NCBI RefSeq assembly: GCF_019059575.1
Contig: NW_024882732.1
Span: 124,001-188,000, forward strand
Direction of reading: 5' to 3'
DNA: 64,000 nucleotides
Source: Amphibalanus amphitrite
Lineage: Eukaryota; Arthropoda; Thecostraca; Balanomorpha; Balanidae
The position numbers and the translations under genes were made by a program. The notes below the pieces were generated by a model. It made no database searches. It was not told where the DNA came from and was given only the letters and a program-made list of their open reading frames with translations. Below, piece by piece: positions 10,575 through 38,341 of this stretch; within the stretch, counting starts at the first letter, position 1, and every line of letters starts with the position of its first letter.

Positions 10575-10748
10575 GTACCTATGTAATTTGGCACCATACA
10601 AGCGAAATGTTTTGATTCATTGCTGAATCAAATCCATTATTATGGCTTAACTTTTCTATTTAATCAAAATATATTTGTTTTGAAACTTTTTGTCTCTCCA
10701 GACACAACACCAGAGACGAGACTCCGTGGGACGCACAGAGTCACAAGG

Positions 10749-13280: not shown

Positions 13281-13335
13281 AAAAGCGTGACCACGGCCGG
13301 CCGGCCGGCCGCTCATACTCAGAAATTTCCGTTAA

Positions 13336-14513: not shown

Positions 14514-15124
14514 TTAATCTAAGGAAAGACTACGCTCGCTTCGCTCGCTCCGTAATAACCATATACCATGTCCATGGACCATGACGTCAACGCGTTTTGT
14601 ATCCTCGTCTTATGAACGGGCATGCCAGCCGCTTATGAGAACTTGTCATTGTGCCTTAGCCCTTAATCTACCGGCAAGGCAATGAGTGTTACTTGGGCTC
14701 ATATAGCGCTACATTGTTTCGGGGTCTTTTTTCGTTCAACTAGCTGGTCGGCGCTTACGATTGTAGTGTGCCTTGCCGCGTTGTTATCCCAGCAGCCTTG
14801 TGTCTTCTGTGACGGCTCAGAGTCGTGATGATCATGACAGTACGGCTTTCTGCGCAGTTCCGGCGCCAAGACTGACAGATGTCGCTCAAAACCGTTGCCA
14901 GTATAGCGCTCAGTATTTGTCATTCCGCCGGTGGCTATTCAGAAGAACTAAGAATATATGTGTGGATAAATTCAGTGAATCTTTGCTGTGCTATTGTTTG
15001 TGCCTGGCGCAGTTTGGCTCTGCATGTACGAGATATGTGGTGTGGAAAGTTCATGAGGGAAGTCAAACATCGATTTGTGTTGATGATAATTGACTGCGGC
15101 AGTGTTGGGCGTTGCACTTCTTAG

Positions 15125-18229: not shown

Positions 18230-18410
18230 TTAGGGCCTGGGGTCACCACATGCCTGCCAGGAGCACCCCAGGCCTGACAGCCGACAGGGGCACCACAGGC
18301 CCGCCAGGGGTACCACAGGCCTAGCAGGGGCACCACAGGCCTGTCAGGAGCACCATCGGCCCAGCAGAAGCACTACAGGTCTTCTAGGGGCACTACAGAC
18401 CTGCAAGGGC
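18230..18410. repeat. 20-bp minisatellite GGGGCACCACAGGCCTGCCA
   Basis: Imperfect 20-bp units follow head to tail. The same array, inverted and longer, forms the middle of the element at 47478-49224; a few more units lie at 20690-20756 and 23295-23325, on either side of the LINE. Confidence 0.8.
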
Positions 18411-20689
18411 CATGGGTGGAGAACCTGCCCCGGCCACCCCGGCCGTGGCCGGGGTAACTTTCAGCCGACCCCGGCGCGGCCGGGGTAACCTTTTTCCACT
18501 TTTGTAAATCCTAAAAGCTGTCTCCATACGAAAAAACTGCCACCTATAAAAGTGTCTCTCATTGTTCTTATCTACCTTGAAAAGTTTGTGAAAATTTACT
18601 TTATTTTCATTTTGGAGCTTCTATGTTTTCAAATCTTTTCATCGCGGAGCCCGACAAGTTTCATCAAACAGAATTAAATCATATTTAAGGGCAGTTATCG
18701 TAAGATGGCACTGCAATAACATCACAAGACAGAACGAGGGTAATATCAGTGAGATAGAAGGACGAGCTGCTGGGGCTCAAGGCTCCCCCCACTTAATCCG
18801 CGCCAGGGTGGTGGCTCTATCGTAACACGTTGAGTCGAGAGGAGGGCGTTTCACGCTCCTTCTAACTCGGCTACTGGGCTACGAGGCGAGAAGCGGAACG
18901 ACGTTTGGAAGAGCGACAAACGTGATCAGAGAAATCTGGTCAGTGGTCATCTTTTAGGCGCAAGCACAATAATAAGCCCACCATAGATCATCAAAAGCCA
19001 AATTTCTCTGATTTTAGCGTTCTCCGACAACTTTTCTCACAGTTCATGAACATAACGGAACTAAAACACTGTAAACAAAACATTCGATAACTCGTTTAAC
19101 CCGCGCCCTGCTGGGGGGGGGGGGGGTGTTTGAACACCCCCCCCCTTGTGGTTTTTCGCGAATATCTCAAAAACGGCGGCGCCGTTTTTGGTACACCTTA
19201 TCATACATCAATTCTACACATGTTGTGAAAATTTCACACCAAGGTCATTCAAGGTCAGGTCACCAGGTCACTTGAAGTAACCTCACCTCATAAAAAGCTT
19301 CAATGTCTGTCATAGCTACACCGAGTGACCGATCGCTTTGAAACTTTCAGCGATTGCTAAGAGCAATAGCATGTACAAAATGTATATCTCAGAATTTTGA
19401 TATCGATGACCTAAGGTCAGGTCAATTTTGCGACCTCCCCATTATAAGTCAATGGGAGAAAATTGAAATGCGCCTCTTTTGGACGAAAGACATTATAAAC
19501 ACTCCCAAACACCGAATTACAAGTGGTTTAGACACACAGAACATGAAAATGGTGTCCGTGACCCTTGTTTATGCCCTGAGGTCATCTTAGGTCACGAATG
19601 GTATCTAACAGTTTTTCGCAAATAACTTTTGATAGAGGCATGCTAGAGCGATGAAAACGCCTTAGATGTGTTCAGCTCGACGATACGGATCGACTGATAT
19701 GCAACATGACCCTTTCCGGTCAGGTCATGACCTTGACCTGAGGTCAATTTTTCAAGTTGACCTTCCAAGGTCAAGTTATAGTTCATGCGATGCGTCTTGA
19801 CGAGAGGAACACGATGCCGGTAAAAGTAAGCTCGTACAAGGCTTGGGTCAAAAGTTATTGCAGAAAAACTGTTTCCGAAAAAATCGGCTATTTTTGCAGT
19901 TTTTGCCCCCTGCAGGCAAAACCGTTGACGTTAGGTCAAATCTGAGAGGATTATTCAGAAAGGGCGTTAATAGGGCTATCGAATGCGCTTTTCCGCGGCG
20001 CTGTAGCTCTATTGGTTTCCGAGTTATGCGTTGGCTTCTTGGAAATTTTCGACATTCGACCTGGAAATCGGCGAAATTTTGCCTTCAATGACCTCTGGTG
20101 ACCTGACCTTTGACCTGACCAAAAAATTGACCGAAGTGATTTCGTCATTATTTTTGACGCTCTTTCGAACGCCGCCTTCCGCGTATCGCTACGTGGCCCA
20201 GGAGCCGAGTTACAAGGGGGGTGTTCAAACACCCCCCCCCCCCCCCAGCAGGGCGTGGAAATCCAGGACCCCCAGCCGGGCGCGGGTTAAGACTCGGTCG
20301 CTAATAATATTTCAGGTGCGAGCTCAAATCAATAAGAGGGTTTAAACGGTCCAGTTTGACATTTTTGTGTGGGAAGGTTGCAACTTCCACGGAATAAGCT
20401 TTGCAAAGGGCATGATGACATTTTTAGCACGATCATCCAGCAAATTTGACCTGATGACCTGACCTGACACTAGGTGACATGCGTCCGAAATTTTAAGGCG
20501 TGTTGCAAAATTGTTGTTATAATTACATCAAAAGCCATTTTCCATAAAAACGTACAAACGGCCATCCATTATTCCATCAGCCACAGAATAGGGGTTTGTT
20601 GATAACCGTTAACAAATATTTGAGCATCATCGTCTCTCTGACTTTCGGTCGCCGGCCGGGGTAACTTTTTCAAACATTCTCCACCCATG
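18411..20689. mobile_element. TIR element with ends CATGGGTGGAGAA
   Basis: The 13-bp inverted terminal repeat CATGGGTGGAGAA/TTCTCCACCCATG sits within the 20-bp minisatellite. The subterminal GGCCGGGGTAAC motif is also inverted at the two ends. GGC flanks both sides, a possible 3-bp duplication but weak inside a repeat. More than half of its length is a nested TTAA MITE (19100-20286). The terminus resembles that of the hAT MITE at 1041, so hAT affinity is possible. Confidence 0.5.
19100..20286. mobile_element. TTAA MITE, piggyBac-like, AGGTCA-rich (copy D)
   Basis: Flanked by TTAA on both sides (19096-19099, 20287-20290), with CCCGCGCC at the left and GGCGCGGG at the right. Subterminal hairpins have a G-run, an inner stem of the TGTTTGAACA type and a C-run at both ends. 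It is homologous along its length to copy B. The interior holds AGGTCA/TGACCT clusters around 19250-19275, 19405-19420, 19720-19775 and 20090-20120. No coding capacity. Confidence 0.85.
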
Positions 20690-20756: not shown

Positions 20757-23257
20757 ATACATACATACATACATACATACATACATACATAAAGGTTTAT
20801 TTGACCACGTGACAGTCATCGACTGGTAAAAAGGCCGTACATGAGCTGTGCAATGGTGGCACCACATGAAGAAGTGAAAAGCATCACAACAATTAAAAAC
20901 ACAGTGCATTTCAAAAGAGCTCCGAACATATCTACGTGGGGATCACATCCTGTTCATTAGATCTATGAGTACAGGCACAGTGGACTTTTTATACCGCTCA
21001 GTTTTGGCCCGCGGTACGACAAACTTTCGCTGCCGGCGCAGAGGGCGCCTCACATTTGCCAGCTGCTCGCCCGGGTACAGTGGGTGGGCGGGGTTGGCGA
21101 GGATGTCGGCCGCCAGCTTGCAGAGGACAGCATCGCGACGCTCGCTCAGAGTCTCGAGGTTGAGGAGCTGGCAGGCAGAGGCGTAGTCGGTGTAGTTTTC
21201 GTATCCTATCATGATTTTGCAAGCTCTTTTCTGAACTTGCTCGATTGCTTGTGCTTGTTGCTGTGTCAGTCCCGTGTGCCACAGTTGAGAGCAGTATTCC
21301 AGACATGGACGAATGAAGCTGATGTAGACGGCGCGGATATCGCTCAGATCTGCATGGAACTGACGGAGGACTGTGAGCATGAACAGCCTGCGAGAGGCGT
21401 TTTTTGTGATATGATTTGTATTTGCCGTCCACTTTAAGTCAGAAGTAATATGGACTCCGAGAAGTTTCATGGTAGAGACGACAGGTACTGGCTCGTTGTT
21501 AATGATTACTGCGCCGTCCATATCCGTGTTGTGAGAGAAGTTGCAGATGAGTATATGACACTTTTTTCCGTTGATCTTCATGAGATTGTTCTCTGACCAT
21601 GTTTCCAGAGTGGATGCGGCCGTCTGGGCTTTCTGAAGGACAATGTTTGCATCTCTTGCAGGAGACAGGATGCCGATACTGAGGTCGTCCACATACTTCC
21701 ATCGATGATCTTCGGTAACTGCGCAGTCATTTATATGAGCCAAAAATGCAATCGGGGCGATTTTTGTCCCTTGGGGCGTTCCACACGTGGTAGTGAGCTC
21801 TGATGAGACAGGATTCGAGCCACCAAGTCGAACGACCTGTTTCCGCTCGTTGAGGAAGCTGGCTACTGTAGGCACGATGGAGGGACGAACTTTCTGGTCC
21901 AGTAGTTTCCTGAGCACGACATCATGGCTAACCAGGTCGAAGGCCTTGGAAAAATCGATCGCCAGGATGGCCGCAGCGTTTGAAGAGCTGTCTGTGTTCT
22001 TAGCCAGGAAGTCATATAGCGAGATCAGGTAATGTACTGTAGAGTAGCCTGGCCTGTTTCCGAACTGGTGTGGGTCAAGTGATGGGGTAATGTCAGCCAT
22101 GATCCAGGTTGTCAAAAATCCTTCAAAGATTTTGGAGAAGAGCGGGGTGAGTGAAATGGGTCTAAGATCGTTGAAAGAGGTTGGAGGGTTGACCTTGGGA
22201 ATGGGGGTGATGAAGGATAGCTTCCAAGCAGACGGAAATTTTCCGGAGGATAGCGAGGAGTTGAAGATGTGAGTGAGTGGCTGCGATAATTCGAAGGCAA
22301 ACTCCTTGACCAGCCGTGCTGGTAGCTCATTCGGTGTGGTGGAGATGTTGGAGCGGATGCTGCTCAGTTCCCTCTGGACGTCAGCTCGTCGGATGACCGG
22401 TGGGGGTGCGTCCGCCGGTAGGTAGGCAGGGAATTCCTCCAGGTTGAGTGCCGGCAGCTGGGATGAGATAGATGCGAAGTGCTGGTTGACCGCTTCCGCC
22501 AGCGTCCCACCAGTCTCATACTCAGCGAAGTTTAGCTGTTCGTTCTTTACTCGGCCGGTCAGACTCTTGATTTGACGGTACCAAGTAGCCGGCTTTGCTG
22601 TCCTCATTCCTCGTATTTTCCTGTCGTAGAATTCCGCCTTGGCTTTGCGGCACAGATGAGTGGCCTTATTTCGTAGATGTCGCCACCGGTCGGACATGCC
22701 CTCGAGTCGGAAAACTCTGTGCTTCTGGGCAATGGCGTGTCGGACGGTGGCGGTGATGTGAGGCTTCCCTCGATGTCGCACTGGCAATGTCTTGGTAGGC
22801 AGAAACCGGTCTAGAGCAGTGGAGAGCGTTGACTGCAGCACCGCCACCTGTTCATCGGGGGAAGACGCCTCATATACGGGGGTCCAGTCATGTGCTGTGA
22901 TCCACCTGCCGAATGCTCTAACTCCCGAGTCCGGCAGCATTCGCACGGTCGTTCGTTCCCTCGGTGTCGGCTGGATGGTGCGCGGTCGAGCGTGCACGAT
23001 GACGTGCTTGGAGCGCCCGAGGGGCGACAGCATCACAGGCTCGTGATAATAGTCACCCAGATCGGTCAGGATGAGGTCCAGAACTGAGTCCCCGTGCGTG
23101 GGGGCTGTTACAATTTGATGCAAACCATTGAGCCGGCAGAGGGACTCAACTGGAAAGCTGTTGAAATCACCGCAGATGATAAATCGAGGGCAGTCATACA
23201 GGGTACGGAGCTCATCAATGGCGAACTGAAGGTGCTCCTCGTATTTCACTAGGCAAT
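20757..23257 (-). mobile_element. 5'-truncated non-LTR retrotransposon (CR1/jockey group)
   Basis: On the minus strand it runs from about 23257 to a CATA/TATG microsatellite tail at 20757-20790. Short tandem-repeat tails instead of poly-A are typical of CR1/L2/jockey-group LINEs. The 5' limit was set by comparison with the hAT-like copy at 47478: the bases TTGTCAGGGGGCAGGG and beyond belong to that host element. About 150 bp of 3' UTR lie between the stop and the tail. The endonuclease N-terminal half is missing. Confidence 0.85.
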
Positions 23258-23291
23258 TGTCAGGGGGCAGGGTAGGTAGGGTAGGTACCAC
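20943..23291 (-). CDS. LINE endonuclease/reverse transcriptase ORF, 5'-truncated
   Basis: The open frame is 782 codons with no frameshift or stop. It begins with a C-terminal piece of the apurinic-type endonuclease (FIICGDFNSFP, VLDLILTDL). Reverse transcriptase follows: LRPISLTPLFSKIFE, then AIDFSKAFD with the first catalytic aspartate, CGTPQGTKIAPIAF, and the catalytic KYVDDLSIG (YVDD box). The C-terminal domain ends with QVQKRACKIM and a basic tail. The first dozen residues (MVPTLPTLPPDN) are encoded by the hAT-like element into which the LINE inserted, so the apparent start codon is fortuitous and the real protein is N-terminally incomplete. The intact frame suggests recent insertion. It is not a host gene. 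Confidence 0.88.
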   Translation of the reverse strand: MVPTLPTLPPDNCLVKYEEHLQFAIDELRTLYDCPRFIICGDFNSFPVESLCRLNGLHQIVTAPTHGDSVLDLILTDLGDYYHEPVMLSPLGRSKHVIVHARPRTIQPTPRERTTVRMLPDSGVRAFGRWITAHDWTPVYEASSPDEQVAVLQSTLSTALDRFLPTKTLPVRHRGKPHITATVRHAIAQKHRVFRLEGMSDRWRHLRNKATHLCRKAKAEFYDRKIRGMRTAKPATWYRQIKSLTGRVKNEQLNFAEYETGGTLAEAVNQHFASISSQLPALNLEEFPAYLPADAPPPVIRRADVQRELSSIRSNISTTPNELPARLVKEFAFELSQPLTHIFNSSLSSGKFPSAWKLSFITPIPKVNPPTSFNDLRPISLTPLFSKIFEGFLTTWIMADITPSLDPHQFGNRPGYSTVHYLISLYDFLAKNTDSSSNAAAILAIDFSKAFDLVSHDVVLRKLLDQKVRPSIVPTVASFLNERKQVVRLGGSNPVSSELTTTCGTPQGTKIAPIAFLAHINDCAVTEDHRWKYVDDLSIGILSPARDANIVLQKAQTAASTLETWSENNLMKINGKKCHILICNFSHNTDMDGAVIINNEPVPVVSTMKLLGVHITSDLKWTANTNHITKNASRRLFMLTVLRQFHADLSDIRAVYISFIRPCLEYCSQLWHTGLTQQQAQAIEQVQKRACKIMIGYENYTDYASACQLLNLETLSERRDAVLCKLAADILANPAHPLYPGEQLANVRRPLRRQRKFVVPRAKTERYKKSTVPVLIDLMNRM

Positions 23292-23877: not shown

Positions 23878-23886
23878 ATTGTGGTT
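23878..23886. other. Left target-site duplication ATTGTGGTT
   Basis: Identical to 34971-34979 on the far side of the element. The sequences farther out on the two sides differ, as expected for genuine unique flanks. Confidence 0.85.
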
Positions 23887-24300
23887 ATGTAACGGAAGTT
23901 AGCAGGGATTCAGCAGGGGTTCAGCAGGGATTCAGCAGGGATCGACAGCCCCTACGATTTCGCTGAATTTTGGTGGAGAGATGCAGAATGGTGTCCTCTA
24001 TCGAAAATCCTAGTGCCAAAATGCGGGGAATCCATCAGGGGGGCCACAAATCCCAAAAAACAGTATGCCCTCAGGGCACAATCGACGAACTTTGAAAACC
24101 CTACTTCTAGCCGTCAAAACAGCTAAAAATGCACGACATTCGAAAGAGGACAAAATTTTACGTACAACGGTACCAAATTTAGGGGGCTAGCGCCCCCCTG
24201 AACCGAGCAAAACAGCTTCAAATATATGGGCCCGGGAGTATGCCCTCGGGGCATAAATAAACGTTTTCAACAATTTCAGGCCTATAACATCGACAAAATC

Positions 24301-27300
24301 CAGCAATATGCACATCATTGGAAAGAGCGTAATTTCCCAAACAAAAAACCCAAGTAACATTTTTCGATGGGGCCCACCTGGGGCCCACGGGACCCAATTG
24401 AAATTTGGGGCCCAATGGGGCGGCCCCTACGATTTTCTTCAAAATTTGCACAGACACTCTCCTGGGCCCCCTCTTCAATCTGGCTGAAGAAACCTACCGG
24501 GGAATCCAAAGGAAGGGGCCCAAAGAGGGCCCCAAAGAGGCCCTTTCTAAGTATTGCCCCTAATTTTGCGACCAACCCCGGCAATATGCACATCATTGGA
24601 AAGAGCGTAATTTCCCAAACAAAAAACCCAAGTAACATTTTTCGATGGGGCCCACCTGGGGCCCACGGGACCCAATTGAAATTTGGGGCCCAATGGGGCG
24701 GCCCCTACGATTTTCTTCAAAATTTGCACAGACACTCTCCTGGGCCCCCTCTTCAATCTGGCTGAAGAAACCTACCGGGGAATCCAAAGGAAGGGGCCCA
24801 AAGAGGGCCCCAAAGAGGCCCTTTCTAAGTATTGCCCCTAATTTCGCGACCAACCCCGGCAATATGCACATCATTGGAAAGAGCGTAATTTCCCAAACAA
24901 AAAACCCAAGTAACATTTTTCGATGGGGCCCACCTGGGGCCCACGGGACCCAATTGAAATTTGGGGCCCAATGGGGCGGCCCCTACGATTTTCTTCAAAA
25001 TTTGCACAGACACTCTCCTGGGCCCCCTCTTCAATCTGGCTGAAGAAACGTACCGGGGAATCCAAGGGAAAGGGGCCCAAAGAGGGCCCCAAAGAGGCCC
25101 TTTCAAAGTATTGCCCCTAATTTCGCGACCAACCCCGGCAATATGCACATCATTGGAAAGAGCGTAATTTCCCAAACAAAAACCCAAGTAACATTTTTCG
25201 ATGGGGCCCACCTGGGGCCCACGGGACCCAATTGAAATTTGGGGCCCTATGGGGCGGCCCCTACGATTTTCTTCAAAATTTGCACAGACACTCTCCTGGG
25301 CCCCCTCTTCAATCTGGCTGAAGAAACCTACCGGGGAATCCAAAGAAAGGGGCCCAAAGAGGGCCCCAAAAAGGCCCTTTCTAAGTATTGCCCCTAATTT
25401 CGCGACCAACCCCGGCAATATGCACATCATTGGAAAGAGCGTAATTTCCCAAACAAAAAACCCAAGTAACATTTTTCGATGGGGCCCACCTGGGGCCCAC
25501 GGGACCCAATTGAAATTTGGGGCCCAATGGGGCGGCCCCTACGATTTTCTTCAAAATTTGCACAGACACTCTCCTGGGCCCCCTCTTCAATCTGGCTGAA
25601 GAAACCTACCGGGGAATTCAAAGGAAGGGGCCCAAAGAGGGCCACAAAGAGGCCCTTTCTAAGTATTGCCCCTAATTTCGCGACCAACCCCGGCAATATG
25701 CACATCATTGGAAAGAGCGTAATTTCCCAAACAAAAACCCAAGTAACATTTTTCGATGGGGCCCACCTGGGGCCCACGGGACCCAATTGAAATTTGGGGC
25801 CCAATGGGGCGGCACCTACGATTTTCTTCAAAATTTGCACAGACACTCTCCTGGGCCCCCTCTTCAATCTGGCTGAAGAAACCTACCGGGGAATCCAAAG
25901 GAAGGGGCCCAAAGAGGGCCCCAAAGAGGCCCTTTCTAAGTATTGCCCCTAATTTCGCGACCAACCCCGGCAATATGCACATCATTGGAAAGAGCGTAAT
26001 TTCCCAAACAAAAAACCCAAGTAACATTTTTCGATGGGGCCCACCTGGGGCCCACGGGACCCAATTGAAATTTGGGGCCCAATGGGGCGGCCCCTACGAT
26101 TTTCTTCAAAATTTGCACAGACACTCTCCTGGGCCCCCTCTTCAATCTGGCTGAAGAAACCTACCGGGGAATCCAAGGGAAAGGGGCCCAAAGAGGGCCC
26201 CAAAGAGGCCCTTTCAAAGTATTGCCCCTAATTTCGCGACCAACCCCGGCAATATGCACATCATTGGAAAGAGCGTAATTTCCCAAACAAAAACCCAAGT
26301 AACATTTTTCGATGGGGCCCACCTGGGGCCCACGGGACCCAATTGAAATTTGGGGCCCTATGGGGCGGCCCCTACGATTTTCTTCAAAATTTGCACAGAC
26401 ACTCTCCTGGGCCCCCTCTTCAATCTGGCTGAAGAAACCTACCGGGGAATCCAAAGAAAGGGGCCCAAAGAGGGCCCCAAAAAGGCCCTTTCTAAGTATT
26501 GCCCCTAATTTCGCGACCAACCCCGGCAATATGCACATCATTGGAAAGAGCGTAATTTCCCAAACAAAAAACCCAAGTAACATTTTTCGATGGGGCCCAC
26601 CTGGGGCCCACGGGACCCAATTGAAATTTGGGGCCCAATGGGGCGGCCCCTACGATTTTCTTCAAAATTTGCACAGACACTCTCCTGGGCCCCCTCTTCA
26701 ATCTGGCTGAAGAAACCTACCGGGGAATTCAAAGGAAGGGGCCCAAAGAGGGCCCCAAAGAGGCCCTTTCTAAGTATTGCCCCTAATTTCGCGACCAACC
26801 CCGGCAATATGCACATCATTGGAAAGAGCGTAATTTCCCAAACAAAAAACCCAAGTAACATTTTTCGATGGGGCCCACCTGGGGCCCACGGGACCCAATT
26901 GAAATTTGGGGCCCAATGGGGCGGCCCCTACGATTTTCTTCAAAATTTGCACAGACACTCTCCTGGGCCCCCTCTTCAATCTGGCTGAAGAAACCTACCG
27001 GGGAATCCAAAGGAAGGGGCCCAAAGAGGGCCCCAAAGAGGCCCTTTCTAAGTATTGCCCCTAATTTTGCGACCAACCCCAGCAATATGCACATCATTGG
27101 AAAGAGCGTAATTTCCCAAACAAAAAACCCAAGTAACATTTTTCGATGGGGCCCACCTGGGGCCCACGGGACCCAATTGAAATTTGGGGCCCAATGGGGC
27201 GGCCCCTACGATTTTCTTCAAAATTTGCACAGACACTCTCCTGGGCCCCCTCTTCAATCTGGCTGAAGAAACCTACCGGGGAATCCAAGGGAAAGGGGCC

Positions 27301-28681
27301 CAAAGAGGGCCCCAAAGAGGCCCTTTCTAAGTATTGCCCCTAATTTCGCGACCAACCCCGGCAATATGCACATCATTGGAAAGAGCGTAATTTCCCAAAC
27401 AAAAAACCCAAGTAACATTTTTCGATGGGGCCCACCTGGGCCCACGGGACCCAATTGAAATTTGGGGCCCAATGGGGCGGCCCCTACGATTTTCTTCAAA
27501 ATTTGCACAGACACTCTCCTGGGCCCCTCTTCAATCTGGCTGAAGAAACCTACCGGGGAATCCAAAGGAAGGGGCCCAAAGAGGGCCCCAAAGAGGCCCT
27601 TTCTAAGTATTGCCCCTAATTTCGCGACCAACCCCGGCAATATGCACATCATTGGAAAGAGCGTAATTTCCCAAACAAAAAACCCAAGTAACATTTTTCG
27701 ATGGGGCCCACCTGGGGCCCACGGGACCCAATTGAAATTTGGGGCCCAATGGGGCGGCCCCTACGATTTTCTTCAAAATTTGCACAGACACTCTCCTGGG
27801 CCCCCTCTTCAATCTGGCTGAAGAAACCTACCGGGGAATCCAAGGGAAAGGGGCCCAAAGAGGGCCCCAAATAGGCCCTTTCTAAGTATTGCCCCTAATT
27901 TCGCGACCAACCCCGGCAATATGCACATCATTGGAAAGAGCGTAATTTCCCAAACAAAAACCCAAGTAACATTTTTCGATGGGGCCCACCTGGGGCCCAC
28001 GGGACCCAATTGAAATTTGGGGCCCAATGGGGCGGCCCCTACGATTTTCTTCAAAATTTGCACAGACACTCTCCTGGGCCCCCTCTTCAATCTGGCTGAA
28101 GAAACCTACCGGGGAATCCAAAGGAAGGGGCCCAAAGAGGGCCCCAAAGAGGCCCTTTCTAAGTATTGCCCCCAATTTTGCGACCAACCCCGGCAATATG
28201 CACATCATTGGAAAGAGCGTAATTTTCCAAACAAAAAACCCAAGTAACATTTTTCGATGGGGCCCACCTGGGGCCCACGGGACCCAATTGAAATTTGGGG
28301 CCCAATGGGGCGGCCCCTACGATTTTCTTCAAAATTTGCACAGACACTCTCCTGGGCCCCCTCTTCAATCTGGCTGAAGAAACCTACCGGGGAATCCAAA
28401 GGAAGGGGCCCAAAGAGGGCCCCAAAGAGGCCCTTTCTAAGTATTGCCCCTAATTTTGCGACCAACCCCGGCAATATGCACATCATTGGCAAGAGCGTAA
28501 TTTCCCAAACAAAAAACCCAAGTAACATTTTTCGATGGGGCCCACCTGGGGCCCACGGGACCCAATTGAAATTTGGGGCCCAATGGGGCGGCCCCTACGA
28601 TTTTCTTCAAAATTTGCACAGACACTCTCCTGGGCCCCCTCTTCAATCTGGCTGAAGAAACCTACCGGGGAATCCAAAGGA
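24301..28681 (+). repeat. Left array of the 278-bp unit, about 16 copies
   Basis: Copies recur every 277-278 bp; for example the motif GATGGGGCCCACCTGGGG starts near 24366, 24644, 24922, 25200 and 25478. Copies are nearly identical. A higher-order block of 1,111 bp (four units) repeats: shared rare variants lie at 25176 and 26287 (one A fewer), at 25243 and 26354 (CCCTATGG), and at about 25614 and 26725 (GGAATTCAAAG). The unit length is not a multiple of three, so the open frames of about 130 codons crossing it cannot continue and are not genes. Confidence 0.92.
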
Positions 28682-28690
28682 TGCCGTTGA
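28682..28690. other. Palindrome centre of the Foldback-like element
   Basis: The left array stops inside a unit (at ATCCAAAGGA), nine bases follow (TGCCGTTGA), and the right array starts at a different point of the unit (TCTTTCCAATGATG). The arms meet out of register and almost without a loop. Confidence 0.8.
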
Positions 28691-31600
28691 TCTTTCCAAT
28701 GATGTGCATATTGCCGGGGTTGGTCGCAAAATTAGGGGCAATACTTAGAAAGGGCCTCTTTGGGGCCCTCTTTGGGCCCCTTCCTTTGGATTCCCCGGTA
28801 AGTTTCTTCAGCCAGATTGAAGAGGGGGCCCAGTAGAGTGTCTGTGCAAATTTTGAAGAAAATCGTAGGGGCCGCCCCATTGGGCCCCAAATTTCAATTG
28901 GGTCCCGTGGGCCCCAGGTGGGCCCCATCAAAAAATGTTACTTGGGTTTTTTGTTTGGGAAATTACGCTCTTTCCAATGATGTGCATATTGCCGGGGTTG
29001 GTCGCGAAATTAGGGGCAATACTTAGAAAGGGCCTCTTTGGGGCCCTCTTTGGGCCCCTTTCTTTGGATTCCCCGGTAGGTTTCTTCAGCCAGATTGAAG
29101 AGGGGGCCCAGGAGAGTGTCTGTGCAAATTTTGAAGAAAATCGTAGGGGCCGCCCCATTGGGCCCTAAATTTCAATTGGGTCCCGTGGGCCCCAGGTGGG
29201 CCCCATCGAAAAATGTTACTTGGGTTTTTGTTTGGGAAAGTACGCTCTTTCCAATGATGTGCATATTGCCGGGGTTGGTCGCGAAATTAGGGGCAATACT
29301 TAGAAAGGGCCTCTTTGGGGCCCTCTTTGGGCCCCTTCCTTTGGATTCCCCGGTAGGTTTCTTCAGCCAGATTGAAGAGGGGGCCCAGGAGAGTGTCTGT
29401 GCAAATTTTGAAGAAAATCGTAGGGGCCGCCCCATTGGGCCCCAAATTTCAATTGGGTCCCGTGGGCCCCAGGTGGGCCCCATCGAAAAATGTTACTTGT
29501 GTTTTTTGTTTGGGAAATTACGCTCTTTCCAATGATGTGCATATTGCCGGGGTTGGTCGCGAAATTAGGGGCAATACTTAGAAAGGGCCTCTTTGGGGCC
29601 CTCTTTGGGCCCCTTCCTTTGGATTCCCCGGTAGGTTTCTTCAGCCAGATTGAAGAGGGGGCCCAGGAGAGTGTCTGTGCAAATTTTGAAGAAAATCGTA
29701 GGGGCCGCCCCATTGGGCCCCAAATTTCAATTGGGTCCCGTGGGCCCCAGGTGGGCCCCATCGAAAAATGTTACTTGGGTTTTTTGTTTGGGAAATTACG
29801 CTCTTTCCAATGATGTGCATATTGCCGGGGTTGGTCGCAAAATTAGGGGCAATACTTAGAAAGGGCCTCTTTGGGGCCCTCTTTGGGCCCCTTCCTTTGG
29901 ATTCCCCGGTAGGTTTCTTCAGCCAGATTGAAGAGGGGGCCCAGGAGAGTGTCTGTGCAAATTTTGAAGAAAATCGTAGGGGCCGCCCCATTGGGCCCCC
30001 AAATTTCAATTGGGTCCCGTGGGCCCCAGGTGGGCCCCATCGAAAAATGTTACTTGGGTTTTTTGTTTGGGAAATTACGCTCTTTCCAATGATGTGCATA
30101 TTGCCGGGGTTGGTCGCAAAATTAGGGGCAATACTTAGAAAGGGCCTCTTTGGGGCCCTCTTTGGGCCCCTTCCTTTGGATTCCCCGGTAGGTTTCTTCA
30201 GCCAGATTGAAGAGGGGGCCCAGGAGAGTGTCTGTGCAAATTTAGAAGAAAATCGTAGGGGCCGCCCCATTGGGCCCCAAATTTCAATTGGGTCCCGTGG
30301 GCCCCAGGTGGGCCCCATCGAAAAATGTTACTTGGGTTTTTTGTTTGGGAAATTACGCTCTTTCCAATGATGTGCATATTGCCGGGGTTGGTCGCAAAAT
30401 TAGGGGCAATACTTAGAAAGGGCCTCTTTGGGGCCCTCTTTGGGCCCCTTCCTTTGGATTCCCCGGTAGGTTTCTTCAGCCAGATTGAAGAGGGGGCCCA
30501 GGAGAGTGTCTGTGCAAATTTTGAAGAAAATCGTAGGGGCCGCCCCTCTGGGCCCCAAATTTCAATTGGGTCCCGTGGGCCCCAGGTGGGCCCCATCGAA
30601 AAATGTTACTTGGGTTTTTTGTTTGGGAAATTACGCTCTTTCCAATGATGTGCATATTGCCGGGGTTGGTCGCGAAATTAGGGGCAATACTTAGAAAGGG
30701 CCTCTTTGGGGCCCTCTTTGGGCCCCTTCCTTTGGATTCCCCGGTAGGTTTCTTCAGCCAGATTGAAGAGGGGGCCCAGGAGAGTGTCTGTGCAAATTTT
30801 GAAGAAAATCGTAGGGGCCGCCCCATTGGGCCCCAAATTTCAATTGGGTCCCGTGGGCCCCAGGTGGGCCCCATCGAAAAATGTTACTTGTGTTTTTTGT
30901 TTGGGAAATTACGCTCTTTCCAATGATGTGCATATTGCCGGGGTTGGTCGCGAAATTAGGGGCAATACTTAGAAAGGGCCTCTTTGGGGCCCTCTTTAGG
31001 CCCCTTCCTTTGGATTCCCCGGTAGGTTTCTTCAGCCAGATTGAAGAGGGGGCCCAGGAGAGTGTCTGTGCAAATTTTGAAGAAAATCGTAGGGGCCGCC
31101 CCATTGGGCCCCAAATTTCAATTGGGTCCCGTGGGCCCCAGGTGGGCCCCATCGAAAAATGTTACTTGGGTTTTTTGTTTGGGAAATTACGCTCTTTCCA
31201 ATGATGTGCATATTGCCGGGGTTGGTCGCGAAATTAGGGGCAATACTTAGAAAGGGCCTCTTTGGGGCCCTCTTTGGGCCCCTTCCTTTGGATTCCCCGG
31301 TAGGTTTCTTCAGCCAGATTGAAGAGGGGGCCCAGGAGAGTGTCTGTGCAAATTTTGAAGAAAATCGTAGGGGCCGCCCCATTGGGCCCCAAGTTTCAAT
31401 TGGGTCCCGTGGGCCCCAGGTGGGCCCCATCGAAAAATGTTACTTGGGTTTTTTGTTTGGGAAATTACGCTCTTTCCAATGATGTGCATATTGCCGGGGT
31501 TGGTCGCGAAATTAGGGGCAATACTTAGAAAGGGCCTCTTTGGGGCCCTCTTTGGGCCCCTTCCTTTGGATTCCCCGGTAGGTTTCTTCAGCCAGATTGA

Positions 31601-34555
31601 AGAGGGGGCCCAGGAGAGTGTCTGTGCAAATTTTGAAGAAAATCGTAGGGGCCGCCCCATTGGGCCCCAAGTTTCAATTGGGTCCCGTGGGCCCCAGGTG
31701 GGCCCCATCGAAAAATGTTACTTGGGTTTTTTGTTTGGGAAATTACGCTCTTTCCAATGATGTGCATATTGCCGGGGTTGGTCGCGAAATTAGGGGCAAT
31801 ACTTAGAAAGGGCCTCTTTGGGGCCCTCTTTGGGCCCCTTCCTTTGGATTCCCCGGTAGGTTTCTTCAGCCAGATTGAAGAGGGGGCCCAGGAGAGTGTC
31901 TGTGCAAATTTTGAAGAAAATCGTAGGGGCCGCCCCATTGGGCCCCAAATTTCAATTGGGTCCCGTGGGCCCCAGGTGGGCCCCATCGAAAAATGTTACT
32001 TGGGTTTTTTGTTTTGGAAATTACGCTCTTTCCAATGATGTGCATATTGCCGGGGTTGGTCGCAAAATTAGGGGCAATACTTAGAAAGGGCCTCTTTGGG
32101 GCCCTCTTTGGGCCCCTTCCTTTGGATTCCCCGGTAGGTTTCTTCAGCCAGATTGAAGAGGGGGCCCAGGAGAGTGTCTGTGCAAATTTTGAAGAAAATC
32201 GTAGGGGCCGCCCCATTGGGCCCCAAATTTCAATTGGGTCCCGTGGGCCCCAGGTGGGCCCCATCGAAAAATGTTACTTGGGTTTTTTGTTTGGGAAATT
32301 ACGCTCTTTCCAATGATGTGCATATTGCCGGGGTTGGTCGCAAAATTAGGGGCAATACTTAGAAATGGCCTCTTTGGGGCCCTCTTTGGGCCCCTTCCTT
32401 TGGATTCCCCGGTAGGTTTCTTCAGCCAGATTGAAGAGGGGGCCCAGGAGAGTGTCTGTGCAAATTTTGAAGAAAATCGTAGGGGCCGCCCCATTGGGCC
32501 CCAAATTTCAATTGGGTCCCGTGGGCCCCAGGTGGGCCCCATCGAAAAATGTTACTTGGGTTTTTTGTTTGGGAAATTACGCTCTTTCCAATGATGTGCA
32601 TATTGCCGGGGTTGGTCGCAAAATTAGGGGCAATACTTAGAAAGGGCCTCTTTGGGGCCCTCTTTGGGCCCCTTCCTTTGGATTCCCCGGTAGGTTTCTT
32701 CAGCCAGATTGAAGAGGGGGCCCAGGAGAGTGTCTGTGCAAATTTTGAAGAAAATCGTAGGGGCCGCCCCATTGGGCCCCCAAATTTCAATTGGGTCCCG
32801 TGGGCCCCAGGTGGGCCCCATCGAAAAATGTTACTTGGGTTTTTTGTTTGGGAAATTACGCTCTTTCCAATGATGTGCATATTGCCGGGGTTGGTCGCAA
32901 AATTAGGGGCAATACTTAGAAAGGGCCTCTTTGGGGCCCTCTTTGGGCCCCTTCCTTTGGATTCCCCGGTAGGTTTCTTCAGCCAGATTGAAGAGGGGGC
33001 CCAGGAGAGTGTCTGTGCAAATTTTGAAGAAAATCGTAGGGGCCGCCCCATTGGGCCCCAAATTTCAATTGGGTCCCGTGGGCCCCAGGTGGGCCCCATC
33101 GAAAAATGTTACTTGGGTTTTTTGTTTGGGAAATTACGCTCTTTCCAATGATGTGCATATTGCCGGGGTTGGTCGCAAAATTAGGGGCAATACTTAGGAA
33201 AGGGCCTCTTTGGGGCCCTCTTTGGGCCCCTTCCTTTGGATTCCCCGGTAGGTTTCTTCAGCCAGATTGAAGAGGGGGCCCAGGAGAGTGTCTGTGCAAA
33301 TTTTGAAGAAAATCGTAGGGGCCGCCCCATTGGCCCCAAATTTCAATTGGGTCCCGTGGGCCCCAGGTGGGCCCCATCGAAAAATGTTACTTGGGTTTTT
33401 TGTTTGGGAAATTACGCTCTTTCCAATGATGTGCATATTGCCGGGGTTGGTCGCGAAATTAGGGGCAATACTTAGAAAGGGCCTCTTTGGGGCCCTCTTT
33501 GGGCCCCTTCCTTTGGATTCCCCGGTAGGTTTCTTCAGCCAGATTGAAGAGGGGGCCCAGGAGAGTGTCTGTGCAAATTTTGAAGAAAATCGTAGGGGCC
33601 GCCCCATTGGGCCCCAAGTTTCAATTGGGTCCCGTGGGCCCCAGGTGGGCCCCATCGAAAAATGTTACTTGGGTTTTTTGTTTGGGAAATTACGCTCTTT
33701 CCAATGATGTGCATATTGCCGGGGTTGGTCGCGAAATTAGGGGCAATACTTAGAAAGGGCCTCTTTGGGGCCCTCTTTGGGCCCCTTCCTTTGGATTCCC
33801 CGGTAGGTTTCTTCAGCCAGATTGAAGAGGGGGCCCAGGAGAGTGTCTGTGCAAATTTTGAAGAAAATCGTAGGGGCCGCCCCATTGGGCCCCAAATTTC
33901 AATTGGGTCCCGTGGGCCCCAGGTGGGCCCCATCGAAAAATGTTACTTGGGTTTTTTGTTTGGGAAATTACGCTCTTTCCAATGATGTGCATATTGCCGG
34001 GGTTGGTCGCAAAATTAGGGGCAATACTTAGAAAGGGCCTCTTTGGGGCCCTCTTTGGGCCCCTTCCTTTGGATTCCCCGGTAGGTTTCTTCAGCCAGAT
34101 TGAAGAGGGGGCCCAGGAGAGTGTCTGTGCAAATTTTGAAGAAAATCGTAGGGGCCGCCTTATTGGGCCCCAAATTTCAATTGGGTCCCGTGGGCCCCAG
34201 GTGGGCCCCATCGAAAAATGTTACTTGGGTTTTTTTGTTTGGGAAATTACGCTCTTTCCAATGATGTGCATATTGCCGGGGTTGGTCGCAAAATTAGGGG
34301 CAATACTTAGAAAGGGCCTCTTTGGGGCCCTCTTTGGGCCCCTTCCTTTGGATTCCCCGGTAGGTTTCTTCAGCCAGATTGAAGAGGGGGCCCAGGAGAG
34401 TGTCTGTGCAAATTTTGAAGAAAATCGTAGGGGCCGCCCCATTGGGCCCCAAATTTCAATTGGGTCCCGTGGGCCCCAGGTGGGCCCCATCGAAAAATGT
34501 TACTTGGGTTTTTTGTTTGGGAAATTACGCTCTTTCCAATGATGTGCATATTGCT
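28691..34555 (-). repeat. Right array of the 278-bp unit, about 21 copies, inverted
   Basis: The same unit as in the left arm, reverse complemented. Rare variants again show duplication in blocks: an extra C at about 29998 and 32779 (2,781 bp apart, ten units), a G to T in the ACTTGTG motif near 29500 and 30890 (five units apart), and AAGTTTC instead of AAATTTC near 31391, 31669 and 33616. No coding capacity. Confidence 0.92.
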
Positions 34556-34970
34556 GGATTTTGTCGATGTTATAGGCCTGAAATTGTTGAAAACGTTTAT
34601 TTATGCCCCGAGGGCATACTCAGGGGCCCATATATTTGAAGCTGTTTTGTTCGGTTCAGGGGGGCGCTAGCCCCCTAAATTTGGTACCGTTGCATGTAAA
34701 ATTTTGTCGTCTTTCGAATGACGTGCATTTTTAGCTGTTTTGACGGCTAGAAGTAGGGTTTTCAAAGTTCGTCGATTGTGCCCTGAGGGCATACTGTTTT
34801 TTGGGATTTGTGGCCCCCCTGATGGATTCCCCGCATTTTGGCACTAGGATTTTCGATAGAGGACACCATTTTGCACCTCTCCACCAAAATTCAGCGAAAT
34901 CGTAGGGGCCGTCGATCCCTGCTGAATCCCTGCTGAACCCCTGCTGAATCCCTGCTAACTTCCGTTACAT

Positions 34971-34979
34971 ATTGTGGTT
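34971..34979. other. Right target-site duplication ATTGTGGTT
   Basis: Exact copy of 23878-23886. It is followed by unrelated sequence leading to TIMM29. Confidence 0.85.
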
Positions 34980-35881
34980 GTGTCTTGGGCGCTGTTCGGC
35001 GGCCGGCTAGCGCGCTAGCCCGCGCACACATACGTGCACGCAGGGGTAGCCAGTAACAGTTGGTAGCATTAGGCCAAATGGGCGCTCAAAAACTACTACC
35101 CCATAGGGTTTCCATGTTAAATCGACCTTTTTCAAGCGAGCCTCACACGTAAGCTAAAAGATAAAGTGCCAATATTATTGTGGGGAAAGGTAGCCTCAAG
35201 CTTCCTCTACAACCTTTTTATCTAGCGTTTTTCGATGCGGAGGCCATAACAGGTCCAAAAAGCATTGGGCGCTGTCCGAGGTACCAAAAGCCCCTCCATG
35301 AGAGCACAAGTTCCTGCGCATGCGCACATTGCCTCAACCCTGTACTGGCGTACATTAGTGATACTGTTCACGGACTCGGTCAGCCAATCAGCGTCCCCGA
35401 TTACATTAATAGATGTCGCTAGCATTACGTAAATCCTGCTTGCGAACACAATTTAAGAATGAAACAGCTGCGCCATTTCCGCCTTCCATTGATTCCTTCC
35501 ATCTTAGTATCAACTATACGCTTTTCAACTAACTTTAGACTATGTTTTAAACTATGGTCAGTAGGTTATTTCTGGTACATATAATTAAAAAATAACTGCT
35601 TTATGAATTTGGCTTTACTCGTCAGAATAGAATACTCTATTTTTTCCATATTCAAAAAATATATCAACTACCATTCTTCTCATTGGTCAATAGCCCGTTG
35701 CCGGGGCAACCAGCACGTATGTGAGCGCCGGCAAGAGTACTAGCCGTCCGCCGATCAGGGCTTTGGTTGTGTCCTGCAGTTGTGTGTCGTCGTGGTGTCG
35801 GATGATGTGGGGATGTGCTATTTAGATATTTATATGGATATATATTTGTGAATTTTGTTAGCATTTTAGTATATAATCCTT
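34980..35881. other. TIMM29 upstream region with a TE remnant
   Basis: This short interval should hold the TIMM29 promoter. About 35383-35452 resembles an arm of the TIR element at 1760-3275 (CCAATCAGCGTC, CGCTAGC, CTGCTTGCG). No TATA-type element could be assigned with confidence. Confidence 0.4.
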
Positions 35882-38341
35882 ATGTCGAAACTATTGACAC
35901 GGCTCAGGAACGGTCCTCTCGCGAGATGGGGTGAGTGATCTGCAGCTCTAGGAGGCATTACAATTTTGATAAAAACACATCTTGCTTTTCATTTTGCTTG
36001 CATAAAAAATGTTACTAAAGAAAATTCTAAATGAGGTGCTGTCTGAAAATATTAAGTGTTTTTTGTGCTATATGATCTCTTCTATTTTAATTTGGAATTG
36101 AATATGGACTCCGCAGTTTCTATTGACCACATTTATTTGAAGCAAAACATTCTTAAATTGGTAAATTTTAGGAGTTGGATTATGTCTTGCCAAAGGATTT
36201 TCATATTTTGTTAATGTCTTAAAGTGAAATGATTGCTGCATTGCATGTTAAGTACTAGTGTATTTTACTCTTAACCTGTACTTAAACCTCACAACTTTCA
36301 ATGGTTTGAATTTTAACCCGCGCACCGACGGGGGGGGGGGCGGATATGCGGGAAAACCGCGGCGCAAATTTGGTATGACTATTCCCTTATCAATTTTACA
36401 CATGGTGTGCAAGTTTGAACCTCCTACCTTTCAAGGTCAGGTCACCAGGTCACTTTGAATGACCCAACCTCAAGTCACTTTTTTGCAACTTTGTCACCGT
36501 GCCAGAGCTACAGTAGATGTCGGAGGCCTTTGAAAGTCGCAGGATGTTATTAGGTCATTAGTAGCTACAATTTGTATATCTTGGAATTTTGATATCGGTG
36601 ACCTAAGGTCAGGTCAATTTCGCGACCTCCCCATTATAAGTCAATGGGGGAAAAATCAACTCCCTGTTTTTACCACTAAAACGGGTCGGAATGGCCCCAT
36701 ATACCATACATGACTTCATATACGATCAACCTTCACTACCTTGAGGTCTGTTTTGCTGTTGGGCAGCTGTGAGGTCATGTGACGTCATCAAAGGTCACCA
36801 AAGGTTTTTGGCCAATAACTCCGTACAGGAACAAGATACAGACGCGTGGATGGTCTCATTGTGTTCAGCTCGTCAAGATGCATCGAATGATATACATGAT
36901 GACCTCGAGGTCACGTGACCTGAGGTCAACCTTTGACCTTGACCTTTCGAGGTCAACATATATATCATTCGATGCGGATTGACGAGAGGATCACGATGAT
37001 GCCCTTAGTTTGTTCCTATCTTGACTAATTCGAAAGTTATTCGAGAAAAACTCTCTCCATATTTAGCGCCGCCATTTTGACGTTTTCTACCCCTGTGACG
37101 TCAGCTTTGACCTGACCTGAAAATGACCTTCGTAATAATTGTAGATCTTGACCGTGCGTATCCGATGCCGTTTACCGCTTGTCGCTATCTTGCTTCGTTC
37201 TCGAGATCTCAGGGGGGGGCGGTCATCCGCCCCCCCCGTCGGTACTAAGTTGGCGCAGACCCCCGTCGGTGCGCGGGTAATAATAGTAATAGGTAGGTAG
37301 GTACTTCTTTTCCCCATCCTTCCTTTTTCTGCCTTTTGGGTGTCCCTGTTCCTTGCTGAATGTATGTTTCCTTTGCTGTATCTCTCATTGCTCAACCTTT
37401 CCTTTGGTATTACCTATGTGTGAATTTGATTGATGCCAATATAATACCATCACAATTCACAGACATATTGCTTGTAACTTGACATCAATATTACCTACCT
37501 ATGTAATTTCAGGGGCATACTGGAAGCAGCTTGGACAGGACTATGCTGAGGTTTTCCATGACACAGTCAAAGACATAAAAAGCCATCCTTTGAGATCATC
37601 TGTCCACATTGCTGGTGAGTTTTTTTTTTTTTTGCTGATATGAATAGCACATGAATTTTGATTATTTAGCAAGTGAAAAATATGCTGACTCATGCTCAGT
37701 TAACACATTGTTGATGGTTTATTTTAAAGTTTAGTAGTTCCTGAACAATTTGGCTTTGAACTCTTTAATAAGAAGGCTAGTGAATAGTGATGCTTTGTTC
37801 CAGTATGAACATATAATAAGTATTGGTATGAAGTAGCATTGACATTGGCTTACACTATTTTAGTTCACCTATGATTCTACCTCCCCTAATAATCCCATCT
37901 GTCTGGCTGCCAGGTACTGCCACGCTGCTGGTGGCCTGGAACACCAGTCCGGGCGACCAGCAGTTTTCTGACCAGCTGCTGGCCGCTGACGGCCGGCTGC
38001 GTCTGATCGCGCCGCAGCTGCGCCGGCCGGCCGCCGAGCGGCACGTGCGCCGGCTGCGTCAGCTGCAGGCCGACCGCCGGCTGCAGACGCAGAACCTGGG
38101 CCCGCTCAGCCTGCTCTGGGAGCGGCCGTACCCGGAGGGTACGGCGCTGCACGCCGCCCAGTGCGACTACCTGCGGCCCAGCCGGCTGGCCTTCCACGAG
38201 CGCGTGCTGGACGTGGGCGCGTTCGGCCGCTGGTGGCAGCTGTGGCGCACGATGCGGGACTATGACGTCAACGACAAGCTGTTCGCGGATAAGGCGCCGG
38301 TGGTGCCCGCAGAAGTAGAGGTGGCCACCGTCACCAAGTGA
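35882..38341 (+). CDS. TIMM29: Mitochondrial import inner membrane translocase subunit Tim29
   Basis: Three exons: 35882-35930, 37513-37614 and 37914-38341. Both introns are GT-AG and phase 1, and the product is 192 aa. Tim29 is a metazoan-specific component of the TIM22 carrier translocase of the mitochondrial inner membrane. The N-terminus (MSKLLTRLRNGPLARW) is basic, as for a mitochondrial targeting segment. Exon 2 encodes WKQLGQDYAEVFHDTVKDI, the conserved N-terminal helix. Exon 3 begins in the membrane helix (HIAGTATLLVAW across the junction) and carries QTQNLGPLSLLWE, then CDYLRPSRLAFHERVLDVG, FGRWWQLWRTMRDYDVND, the strongest family signature. Intron 1 harbours TTAA MITE copy E. The gene is convergent with the coiled-coil gene that ends at 39703. 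Confidence 0.88.
36317..37277. mobile_element. TTAA MITE, piggyBac-like, AGGTCA-rich (copy E)
   Basis: Left end CCCGCGCACCGACGGGG after TTAA (36313-36316). The right end is its complement, with flank TAAT instead of TTAA. G-run/C-run hairpin at the right end (GGGGGGGCGGTCATCCGCCCCCCC) and a matching G-run at the left. Dense AGGTCA/TGACCT clusters at about 36432-36455, 36598-36615 and 36900-36955. It lies in TIMM29 intron 1. Confidence 0.8.

What the first reader, a model, noticed from the sequence alone, without database searches (positions are those of the whole stretch)
23887..34970. An 11 kb Foldback-like transposon built of about 37 copies of a 278-bp satellite in two inverted arms
Seen: perfect 9-bp duplication ATTGTGGTT outside; inverted termini over 400 bp; about 16 and 21 head-to-tail 278-bp units in opposite orientation; about 9 bp between arms; no ORF that could be a transposase. 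Known: Drosophila Foldback elements have long TIRs made of tandem repeats and 9-bp duplications. Inference: this is a non-autonomous Foldback-type or Mutator-like element whose TIRs grew into satellite arrays, mobilised as a unit. Such a structure links satellite DNA birth and transposition.
Basis: partly seen in the sequence, partly recalled or inferred. Interest (0 to 1): 0.92.

Follow-up and report, generated by a model that had tools for sequence, protein, structure and literature searches.

The report
Satellite-armed foldback transposon family in barnacle
This 11-kb stretch of a barnacle genome is one copy of a repeated inverted-repeat DNA element whose two arms are short end domains followed by head-to-tail copies of one 278-base satellite repeat, and because nearly all copies checked sit between their own short target duplications, the satellite most likely spreads as a transposon, moved by a transposase that was not found.

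Summary
The element is 23887-34970 (11,084 bp) between perfect 9-bp duplications: two 416-bp end domains (10 differences), 15 full units plus 211 bp in one arm, 21 full units plus 24 bp inverted in the other, and 9 bp between them.

The host is the acorn barnacle Amphibalanus amphitrite or a very close relative. In its 807.6-Mb assembly the 21-bp end motif occurs 210 times, against 1 for the reversed pattern. Of 38 inverted tip pairs, 2.1-15.8 kb long, 30 have exact 9-bp and 4 exact 10-bp duplications, all 34 different; mispaired flanks gave 0 of 1,260. All 30 termini fetched abut the same unit in the same phase.

Two copies at unrelated sites match unit by unit along left arms of 22 and 20 units and share a nested insert. 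Two others share one palindrome centre yet are 4.9 and 15.6 kb long. So long arrays travelled with the element, and arm length changed too.

No transposase of its own was found; a Mutator type is likely but unproven. Closest known: Tetris of Drosophila virilis. New variant of a known kind.

The parts
23878..23886 (.). left target-site duplication ATTGTGGTT
   Evidence: exact match to 34971-34979
23887..24302 (+). left end domain, 416 bp, with an 11-bp minisatellite at 23901-23942
   Evidence: 10 of 416 differences to the right end domain; matched elsewhere in the genome in 40 of 40 candidates scored, 214 found
24303..28681 (+). left satellite array: 15 full 278-bp units plus 211 bp
28682..28690 (.). 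9-bp filler at the palindrome centre; joins unit position 211 to unit position 24
28691..34554 (-). right satellite array, inverted: 21 full units plus 24 bp
34555..34970 (-). right end domain, 416 bp, inverted
34971..34979 (.). right target-site duplication ATTGTGGTT

Best explanation
The element belongs to a multi-copy barnacle family of inverted-repeat DNA elements whose arms are a 416-bp end domain plus head-to-tail 278-bp satellite units, and it most likely moves by cut-and-paste with a transposase supplied by some other element. Shown: shared ends, shared unit and phase, distinct 9-10 bp target duplications, lengths of 2.1-15.8 kb, and arrays that match unit by unit between unrelated sites. 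Inferred: (1) the unit arose by tandem duplication of part of the end domain and may repeat transposase-binding sites inward; (2) each palindrome centre formed when an original core was lost, probably through incomplete gap repair after excision, which joined the arms at arbitrary points of the unit; (3) unequal exchange or slippage then lengthened and shortened the arms; (4) a Mutator-type transposase moves it, judged by duplication length alone (my odds for that step about 0.55).
For: Exact TSDs in 34 of 38 tip pairs, all different, control 0 of 1,260. Tip found 99+111 times, control 0+1. 30 of 30 fetched termini abut the unit at the same junction. C1437 and C1745: unrelated left and right flanks, identical left end domains, left-arm units 1-6 equal with 0-1 difference, further blocks in the same order, a shared 489-bp nested insert and one difference in 960 bp of centre. 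C545 and C398: 2 differences in 433 bp of centre, same 14-bp filler, 4.9 against 15.6 kb, each with its own TSD. Eight centre types in ten elements read across the centre. End domain and unit related: local score 47.2 against at most 39.2 in 500 shuffles.
Against: No transposase with these ends was found: 0 of 111 PF10551 places lie inside the 38 tip pairs, and the 30 of 111 loci held contain no end domain or unit. Four pairs lack an exact TSD (C216, C162, C1745; in C67 a 9-bp match is displaced by 5 bp), so one of the two unit-by-unit copies, C1745, is itself without a TSD. The right arms of C1745 and C1437 are not clearly collinear. Arms of the window copy are slightly but significantly differentiated (6 of 2,000 shuffles). 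The three shared blocks are not significantly depleted of variants (2 of 31 variable positions, P=0.11). No empty site was seen, because that search did not complete.
Confidence: 0.9

Rival explanations
1. Short-armed elements transpose and the long arrays grow only afterwards in place (the order suggested for Tetris), with exchange between copies making arrays at different sites look alike.
For: Array turnover is recent: 25 private variants in 36 units against about 120 expected if units were as old as the 2.4% divergence of the end domains. Same centre with arms of very different length. Nearest neighbours of a unit lie in the same element in 27% of cases against 8% by frequency.
Against: C1437 and C1745 share order and variants of left-arm units at unrelated sites, plus a nested insert and identical end domain; exchange would have had to copy the whole left half.
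Confidence: 0.12
2. A dispersed satellite that acquired end domains by chance, spread by segmental duplication or extrachromosomal circles, without transposase.
For: The unit is homogeneous genome-wide: its consensus over 253 units from 24 sources equals that of the window copy. Circles are a known route for satellites (recalled).
Against: Exact, all-different 9-10 bp duplications in 34 of 38 pairs; of 30 flanks of 1.5 kb only one pair matches throughout (C504/C368, apparently one locus on two contigs) and one shares 327 bp at 84%.
Confidence: 0.02
3. Palindrome or array artefact of assembly.
For: The assembly holds at least one locus twice (C504/C368), and array lengths in assemblies can be wrong (general knowledge).
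Against: Unequal arms with arm-specific variants and TSDs in 34 of 38 pairs on many contigs.
Confidence: 0.02
4. Same kind of element, but moved by a non-Mutator enzyme such as a P-type transposase, as in Galileo.
For: Foldback structure does not name the enzyme: Galileo has foldback-like TIRs and a P-superfamily transposase (PMC3573991; PMC3688188; passages). No Mutator core was found in the family.
Against: 9-10 bp duplications fit Mutator-like elements: Tm1, with a Phantom-type Mutator transposase, has mostly 9 bp (PMC3169594, passages); P-type duplications are 7-8 bp (recalled).
Confidence: 0.4

Closest known systems
Tetris, foldback transposon of Drosophila virilis and D. americana (PMC4079207; passages read)
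   Same: Non-autonomous; external end domain, then tandem repeats of about 220 bp; TSDs of 8-10 bp; a 37-bp stretch shared by end domain and repeat, from which the repeat is thought to derive; repeats also form satellite arrays.
   Different: No sequence comparison was made. Tetris complete copies: three found, TIRs up to 1,735 bp, with a middle domain. Here: arms of 4.8 and 6.3 kb in the window copy, no middle domain in the ten elements read across the centre except a nested insert in two, and 34 of 38 tip pairs with exact TSDs. Tetris authors suggest that larger arrays may disrupt transposition; C1437 and C1745 speak against that here.
Galileo (P superfamily, Drosophila; PMC3573991 and PMC3688188, passages read)
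   Same: Foldback-like TIRs with internal tandem repeats (about 210 bp in subfamily F); different repeat numbers in the two TIRs; long-TIR copies lack the transposase ORF; transposase DNA-binding domain binds sites repeated in the TIR, the first about 70 bp from the end.
   Different: Up to three internal repeats and TIRs of about 1.26 kb; here arms of dozens of units. Its known transposase is P-type; none is known here.
Tm1 Mutator/Foldback family of root-knot nematodes (PMC3169594; passages read)
   Same: Composite TIRs with variable numbers of tandem repeats, TSDs of 8-10 bp, mostly 9, non-autonomous members.
   Different: Repeats of about 14 bp; one member type encodes a Phantom-type Mutator transposase; elements of about 1-2.6 kb.
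Drosophila Foldback (FB) elements (recalled)
   Same: Long inverted ends made of tandem repeats, 9-bp TSDs.
   Different: Short repeats of about 10-31 bp (recalled) instead of a 278-bp satellite unit.
Helentrons with satellite-like arrays in Pacific oyster (PMC7492417; search listing and start of abstract only)
   Same: Tandem repeats dispersed by a non-autonomous mobile element.
   Different: Helitron-type elements make no TSD and lack long inverted arms (recalled); here both are present.

Membership tests
Foldback-like structural class | long inverted termini containing tandem repeats | tested here: met
   4.8-kb inverted arms of 278-bp units; same in the other nine elements read across the centre
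Foldback-like structural class | target duplication of about 9 bp | tested here: met
   30 of 38 exact 9 bp, 4 exact 10 bp, 4 without an exact one
Foldback-like structural class | mobile family: several copies at unrelated sites | tested here: met
   210 tips; 34 different TSDs
Tetris | sequence similarity to Tetris TIR-FD or TIR-220 | not tested
   no Tetris sequence was compared; only the architecture was
Tetris | repeat related to the end domain | tested here: met
   local score 47.2 against at most 39.2 in 500 shuffles
Mutator/Phantom superfamily | 9-11 bp target duplications (range partly recalled) | tested here: met
Mutator/Phantom superfamily | MULE transposase encoded between these ends | tested here: inconclusive
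   111 PF10551 places in the genome, 0 inside the 38 tip pairs; 30 loci held contain neither end domain nor unit; more than half of the 210 tips were not listed
P superfamily (Galileo) | P-type transposase with THAP domain between these ends | not tested
   no search made for that family
P superfamily (Galileo) | 7-8 bp target duplications (recalled) | tested here: not met
   9 or 10 bp in all 34 exact cases

The most novel reading that the evidence does not exclude
A satellite DNA that is itself a transposon: the 278-bp unit is a transposase-docking module descended from the element's own end, arms of dozens of modules are favoured because they capture a foreign transposase, and the satellite spreads as whole 2-16 kb palindromes instead of by exchange within heterochromatin.
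Probability: 0.3. Interest if true: 0.86.

Novelty: new variant of a known kind. Interest (0 to 1): 0.7.

Why it matters
The link between transposons and the birth of satellites is usually argued from fragments. Here one genome holds dozens of TSD-flanked copies with the same ends and the same unit but different array lengths, some of which can be compared unit by unit. That makes two open questions measurable: whether long tandem arrays can transpose (C1437 and C1745 speak for it) and how fast arrays grow and shrink between transpositions. The family is also a dispersed source of multi-kilobase palindromes, structures known to provoke rearrangement (general knowledge); three of the 38 pairs lack any TSD and are candidates for recombination products.

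Tried and rejected
Searches of the end tip and the unit motif in viral contigs and of the unit motif in prokaryote genomes found nothing, as expected for a barnacle sequence. Relatives of the neighbouring reverse transcriptase in viral contigs: none confirmed. Rfam: no match in the window. ARAGORN: no tRNA.

Candidate autonomous core, rejected: C92 (14,087 bp, exact TSD) holds 6.2 kb that is not array and has a 585-codon open frame. I took it for the family's transposase until units were seen to resume in the same orientation and phase beyond it, with its own 22-bp inverted ends; it is a separate transposon nested in the left arm. The 489-bp middle of C1745 and C1437 likewise proved to be an insert within the inverted array. 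A non-array stretch in C484 (from about 204,094) stays unexplained.

Assembly artefact: rejected because of unequal arms, arm-specific variants and exact TSDs. Segmental duplication: rejected for the 30 loci with 1.5-kb flanks, where only C504/C368 matched throughout and C104 (two sites) shared 327 bp at 84% (plus strand only). Variant-free shared blocks as evidence of binding sites: not significant.

Script one search stopped with an error after its first part; the rest was redone.

Full report
What is there. Window positions 23887-34970 hold an 11,084-bp element between perfect 9-bp duplications ATTGTGGTT (23878-23886, 34971-34979). Each end begins with ATGTAACGGAAGTTAGCAGGG and contains an 11-bp minisatellite; the 416-bp end domains (23887-24302; 34555-34970 inverted) differ at 10 of 416 positions. 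Inside lie 15 full 278-bp units plus 211 bp in one orientation and 21 full units plus 24 bp in the other, joined by 9 bp (28682-28690). Full units differ on average by 4.1 positions within the left arm, 2.9 within the right and 3.7 between arms. Aligned from the outside, the arms match at 98.6% over 4,795 bp. The 9 bp is not a hairpin loop: the units on its two sides are out of phase, and the tightest pairings found leave loops of 140 nt (80% identity over 800 nt) or 206 nt (88%).

History of the arrays in this copy. The left arm repeats a pattern every four units (lag 4 p=0.0015; 0.035 over 8 lags); the right arm has no significant lag (0.23 over 12) but has a 658-bp exact match at a distance of ten units. 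The arm consensuses differ at one position, and two variants occur together in units of both arms (L04, L08 and R20), yet the arms are slightly differentiated overall (6 of 2,000 shuffles reach the observed value). Private variants number 25 in 36 units, about a fifth of the 120 expected if the units were as old as the divergence of the end domains. Inference: the arrays turned over after the ends diverged.

Where the unit came from. The end domain contains, in order, three blocks found in the unit: GCCCCTACGATTT, CGGGGAATCCA and ATGCACnnCATTnGAAAGA. The local alignment scores 47.2; 500 dinucleotide shuffles reach at most 39.2 (mean 24.0) and the reverse strand 20.6. Inference: the unit is a duplicated, diverged part of the end domain, as proposed for Tetris. 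The unit holds GGGCCC six times (2,000 shuffles: mean 0.76, maximum 4); meaning unknown.

Host. An ORF at 10620-11387 is 99% identical, over 83% of its length, to Amphibalanus amphitrite LOC122378999 and 70% to a Pollicipes pollicipes protein. The window is contig C1235, 124001-188000, of an 807.6-Mb assembly of 2,644 contigs.

The family. The unit was found on 12 contigs (40 of 121 candidates scored); nine of these have tips nearby in the lists, and three lie beyond the listed part, so no free satellite array was seen, but the test is incomplete. The end domain matched in full or lacking one base in 40 of 40 scored candidates, of 214. The 21-bp tip, with up to 2 mismatches allowed, occurs 99 + 111 times against 0 + 1 for the reversed pattern; only the first 100 places are listed. 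All 30 termini fetched with flanks abut the unit at the same junction: for 16 left ends units were aligned inward, for 14 right ends the 15 adjoining bases were read, one with a mismatch; whole units were taken from 12 of the right-end loci.

Target duplications. I took all 34 neighbouring inverted tip pairs under 16 kb among the 100 listed places, plus C995, the window element, C1745 and C1437: 38 pairs, 2,128 to 15,835 bp long. Exact duplications: 30 of 9 bp and 4 of 10 bp, all 34 different. None in C216, C162 and C1745; in C67 the 9-bp match TCCTTTGTG is displaced by 5 bp. Left flank of one element against right flank of another, for the 36 pairs: 0 of 1,260 exact matches of 8-10 bp. The other 32 listed tips were not followed as pairs.

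Arrays travel. C1437 (12,892 bp, TSD TTTGAGGCG) and C1745 (11,765 bp, no TSD) have left flanks without similarity over 1.5 kb and right flanks without a match. Their left end domains are identical. Left arms have 20 and 22 full units. Units 1-6 of one equal units 1-6 of the other with 0-1 difference; C1745 then has a block resembling units 3-6 again, its units 12-18 match 7-13 with 1-3 differences, and its last two equal 19 and 20. Both carry the same 489-bp insert in the inverted array next to the centre, and 960 bp around the centre differ at one position. The plainest account is one ancestor with a left arm of about 20 units, moved at least once, then altered by a tandem duplication and losses. 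The right arms, 14 against 20 full units, are not clearly collinear.

Centres. Ten elements were read across the centre. They join unit positions 211|9 bp|24 (window), 174|14 bp|245 (C545 and C398), 219|2 bp|94 (C2), 66|about 0|131 (C67), 35|about 0|25 (C163), 119|3 bp|16 (C137), 36|about 0|164 (C53) and 184|about 0|11 (C1745 and C1437): eight types. C545 (4,879 bp) and C398 (15,620 bp) share 433 bp of centre with 2 differences and the same filler; their two innermost right units are identical, the two innermost left units differ by 4 and 1. Inference: the centre marks a lineage, formed once by loss of a core and end-joining, and arm length changes quickly afterwards.

Age and amount. Of 31 end domains compared, the 29 outside the window copy lie within 3 differences of the consensus; 5 of 8 left-right pairs are identical, the window pair differs by 10. 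The set was chosen by similarity to the window's left end and so leans to young copies; C67's ends match the window's left end at only 97.6 and 96.4%. Mean length of the 38 elements is 8.8 kb; times about 105 elements this gives about 0.93 Mb or 0.11% of the assembly, a rough figure that counts nested inserts and loci held twice such as C504/C368.

Which enzyme. The 9-10 bp duplications fit Mutator-like elements such as Tm1 (PMC3169594, passages). The genome has 111 PF10551 places, 14 of them in open frames of 440-520 codons without a stop, but none lies inside the 38 tip pairs and the 30 loci held contain no end domain or unit. Galileo shows that foldback structure alone does not name the enzyme (PMC3573991; PMC3688188; passages).

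A trap met on the way. C92 contains a 585-codon open frame that I first took for the missing transposase. It belongs to a 6,233-bp transposon with 22-bp inverted ends (21 of 22) nested in the left arm; see the things noticed.

In print. Tetris (PMC4079207, passages) already linked a foldback element to satellite birth. Searches for foldback-satellite links or for this kind of element in barnacles listed, by title and start of abstract, no paper that describes it; (amphitrite, barnacle, genome, foldback) returned none. The library holds only open-licence papers. The original Phantom paper was not held.

Noticed in passing
contig C92 330458-336690 of the host genome (loci L136, L137, L138): A 6,233-bp DNA transposon with ends CGTAGCGCCCAGAYTGCGGCCA (21 of 22) nested in a satellite arm. 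It encodes a 585-aa protein identical to A. amphitrite LOC122370995, 38% identical to a sea-spider (Pycnogonum litorale) protein, with no Pfam family over its cut-off. Its predicted fold (pLDDT 69, pTM 0.54) matches RAG1 (11) and Transib (1) in all 12 PDB hits at E<=0.001 (best 2.9e-8, TM 0.33), so it looks like a RAG1/Transib-type transposase of an unclassified family.
   Followed up: partly
window 34985-35763: A likely older element right beside the insertion: 49-bp inverted ends and GGTTGTGTC on both sides; the satellite element's target overlaps this duplication.
   Followed up: partly
window 13332-14517, 19096-20290, 36389-37001: Repeat pair 82% identical over 1.2 kb, with a third relative at 67%.
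   Followed up: no
window 18235-18409 and 47847-48307: 20-bp minisatellites, lying in longer segments repeated in inverted orientation at 88-93%.
   Followed up: no
window 20943-23291: Reverse transcriptase frame of 782 codons on the minus strand; nearest relatives unnamed contigs at 79-87%, named ones in amphioxus, crinoid and sea urchins at 34-40%.
   Followed up: no
window 24303-34554: GGGCCC six times in each consensus unit against 7 in 52.9 kb of the rest of the window.
   Followed up: no
C484 from about 204094 to beyond 205300 (L135): Non-array, GC-rich, internally repetitive stretch inside a TSD-flanked 15.8-kb element.
   Followed up: no
window 10620-11387, 37871-38341, 62531-64000: Host gene pieces: CDP-alcohol phosphatidyltransferase, Tim29 and a LEM-domain frame.
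   Followed up: no
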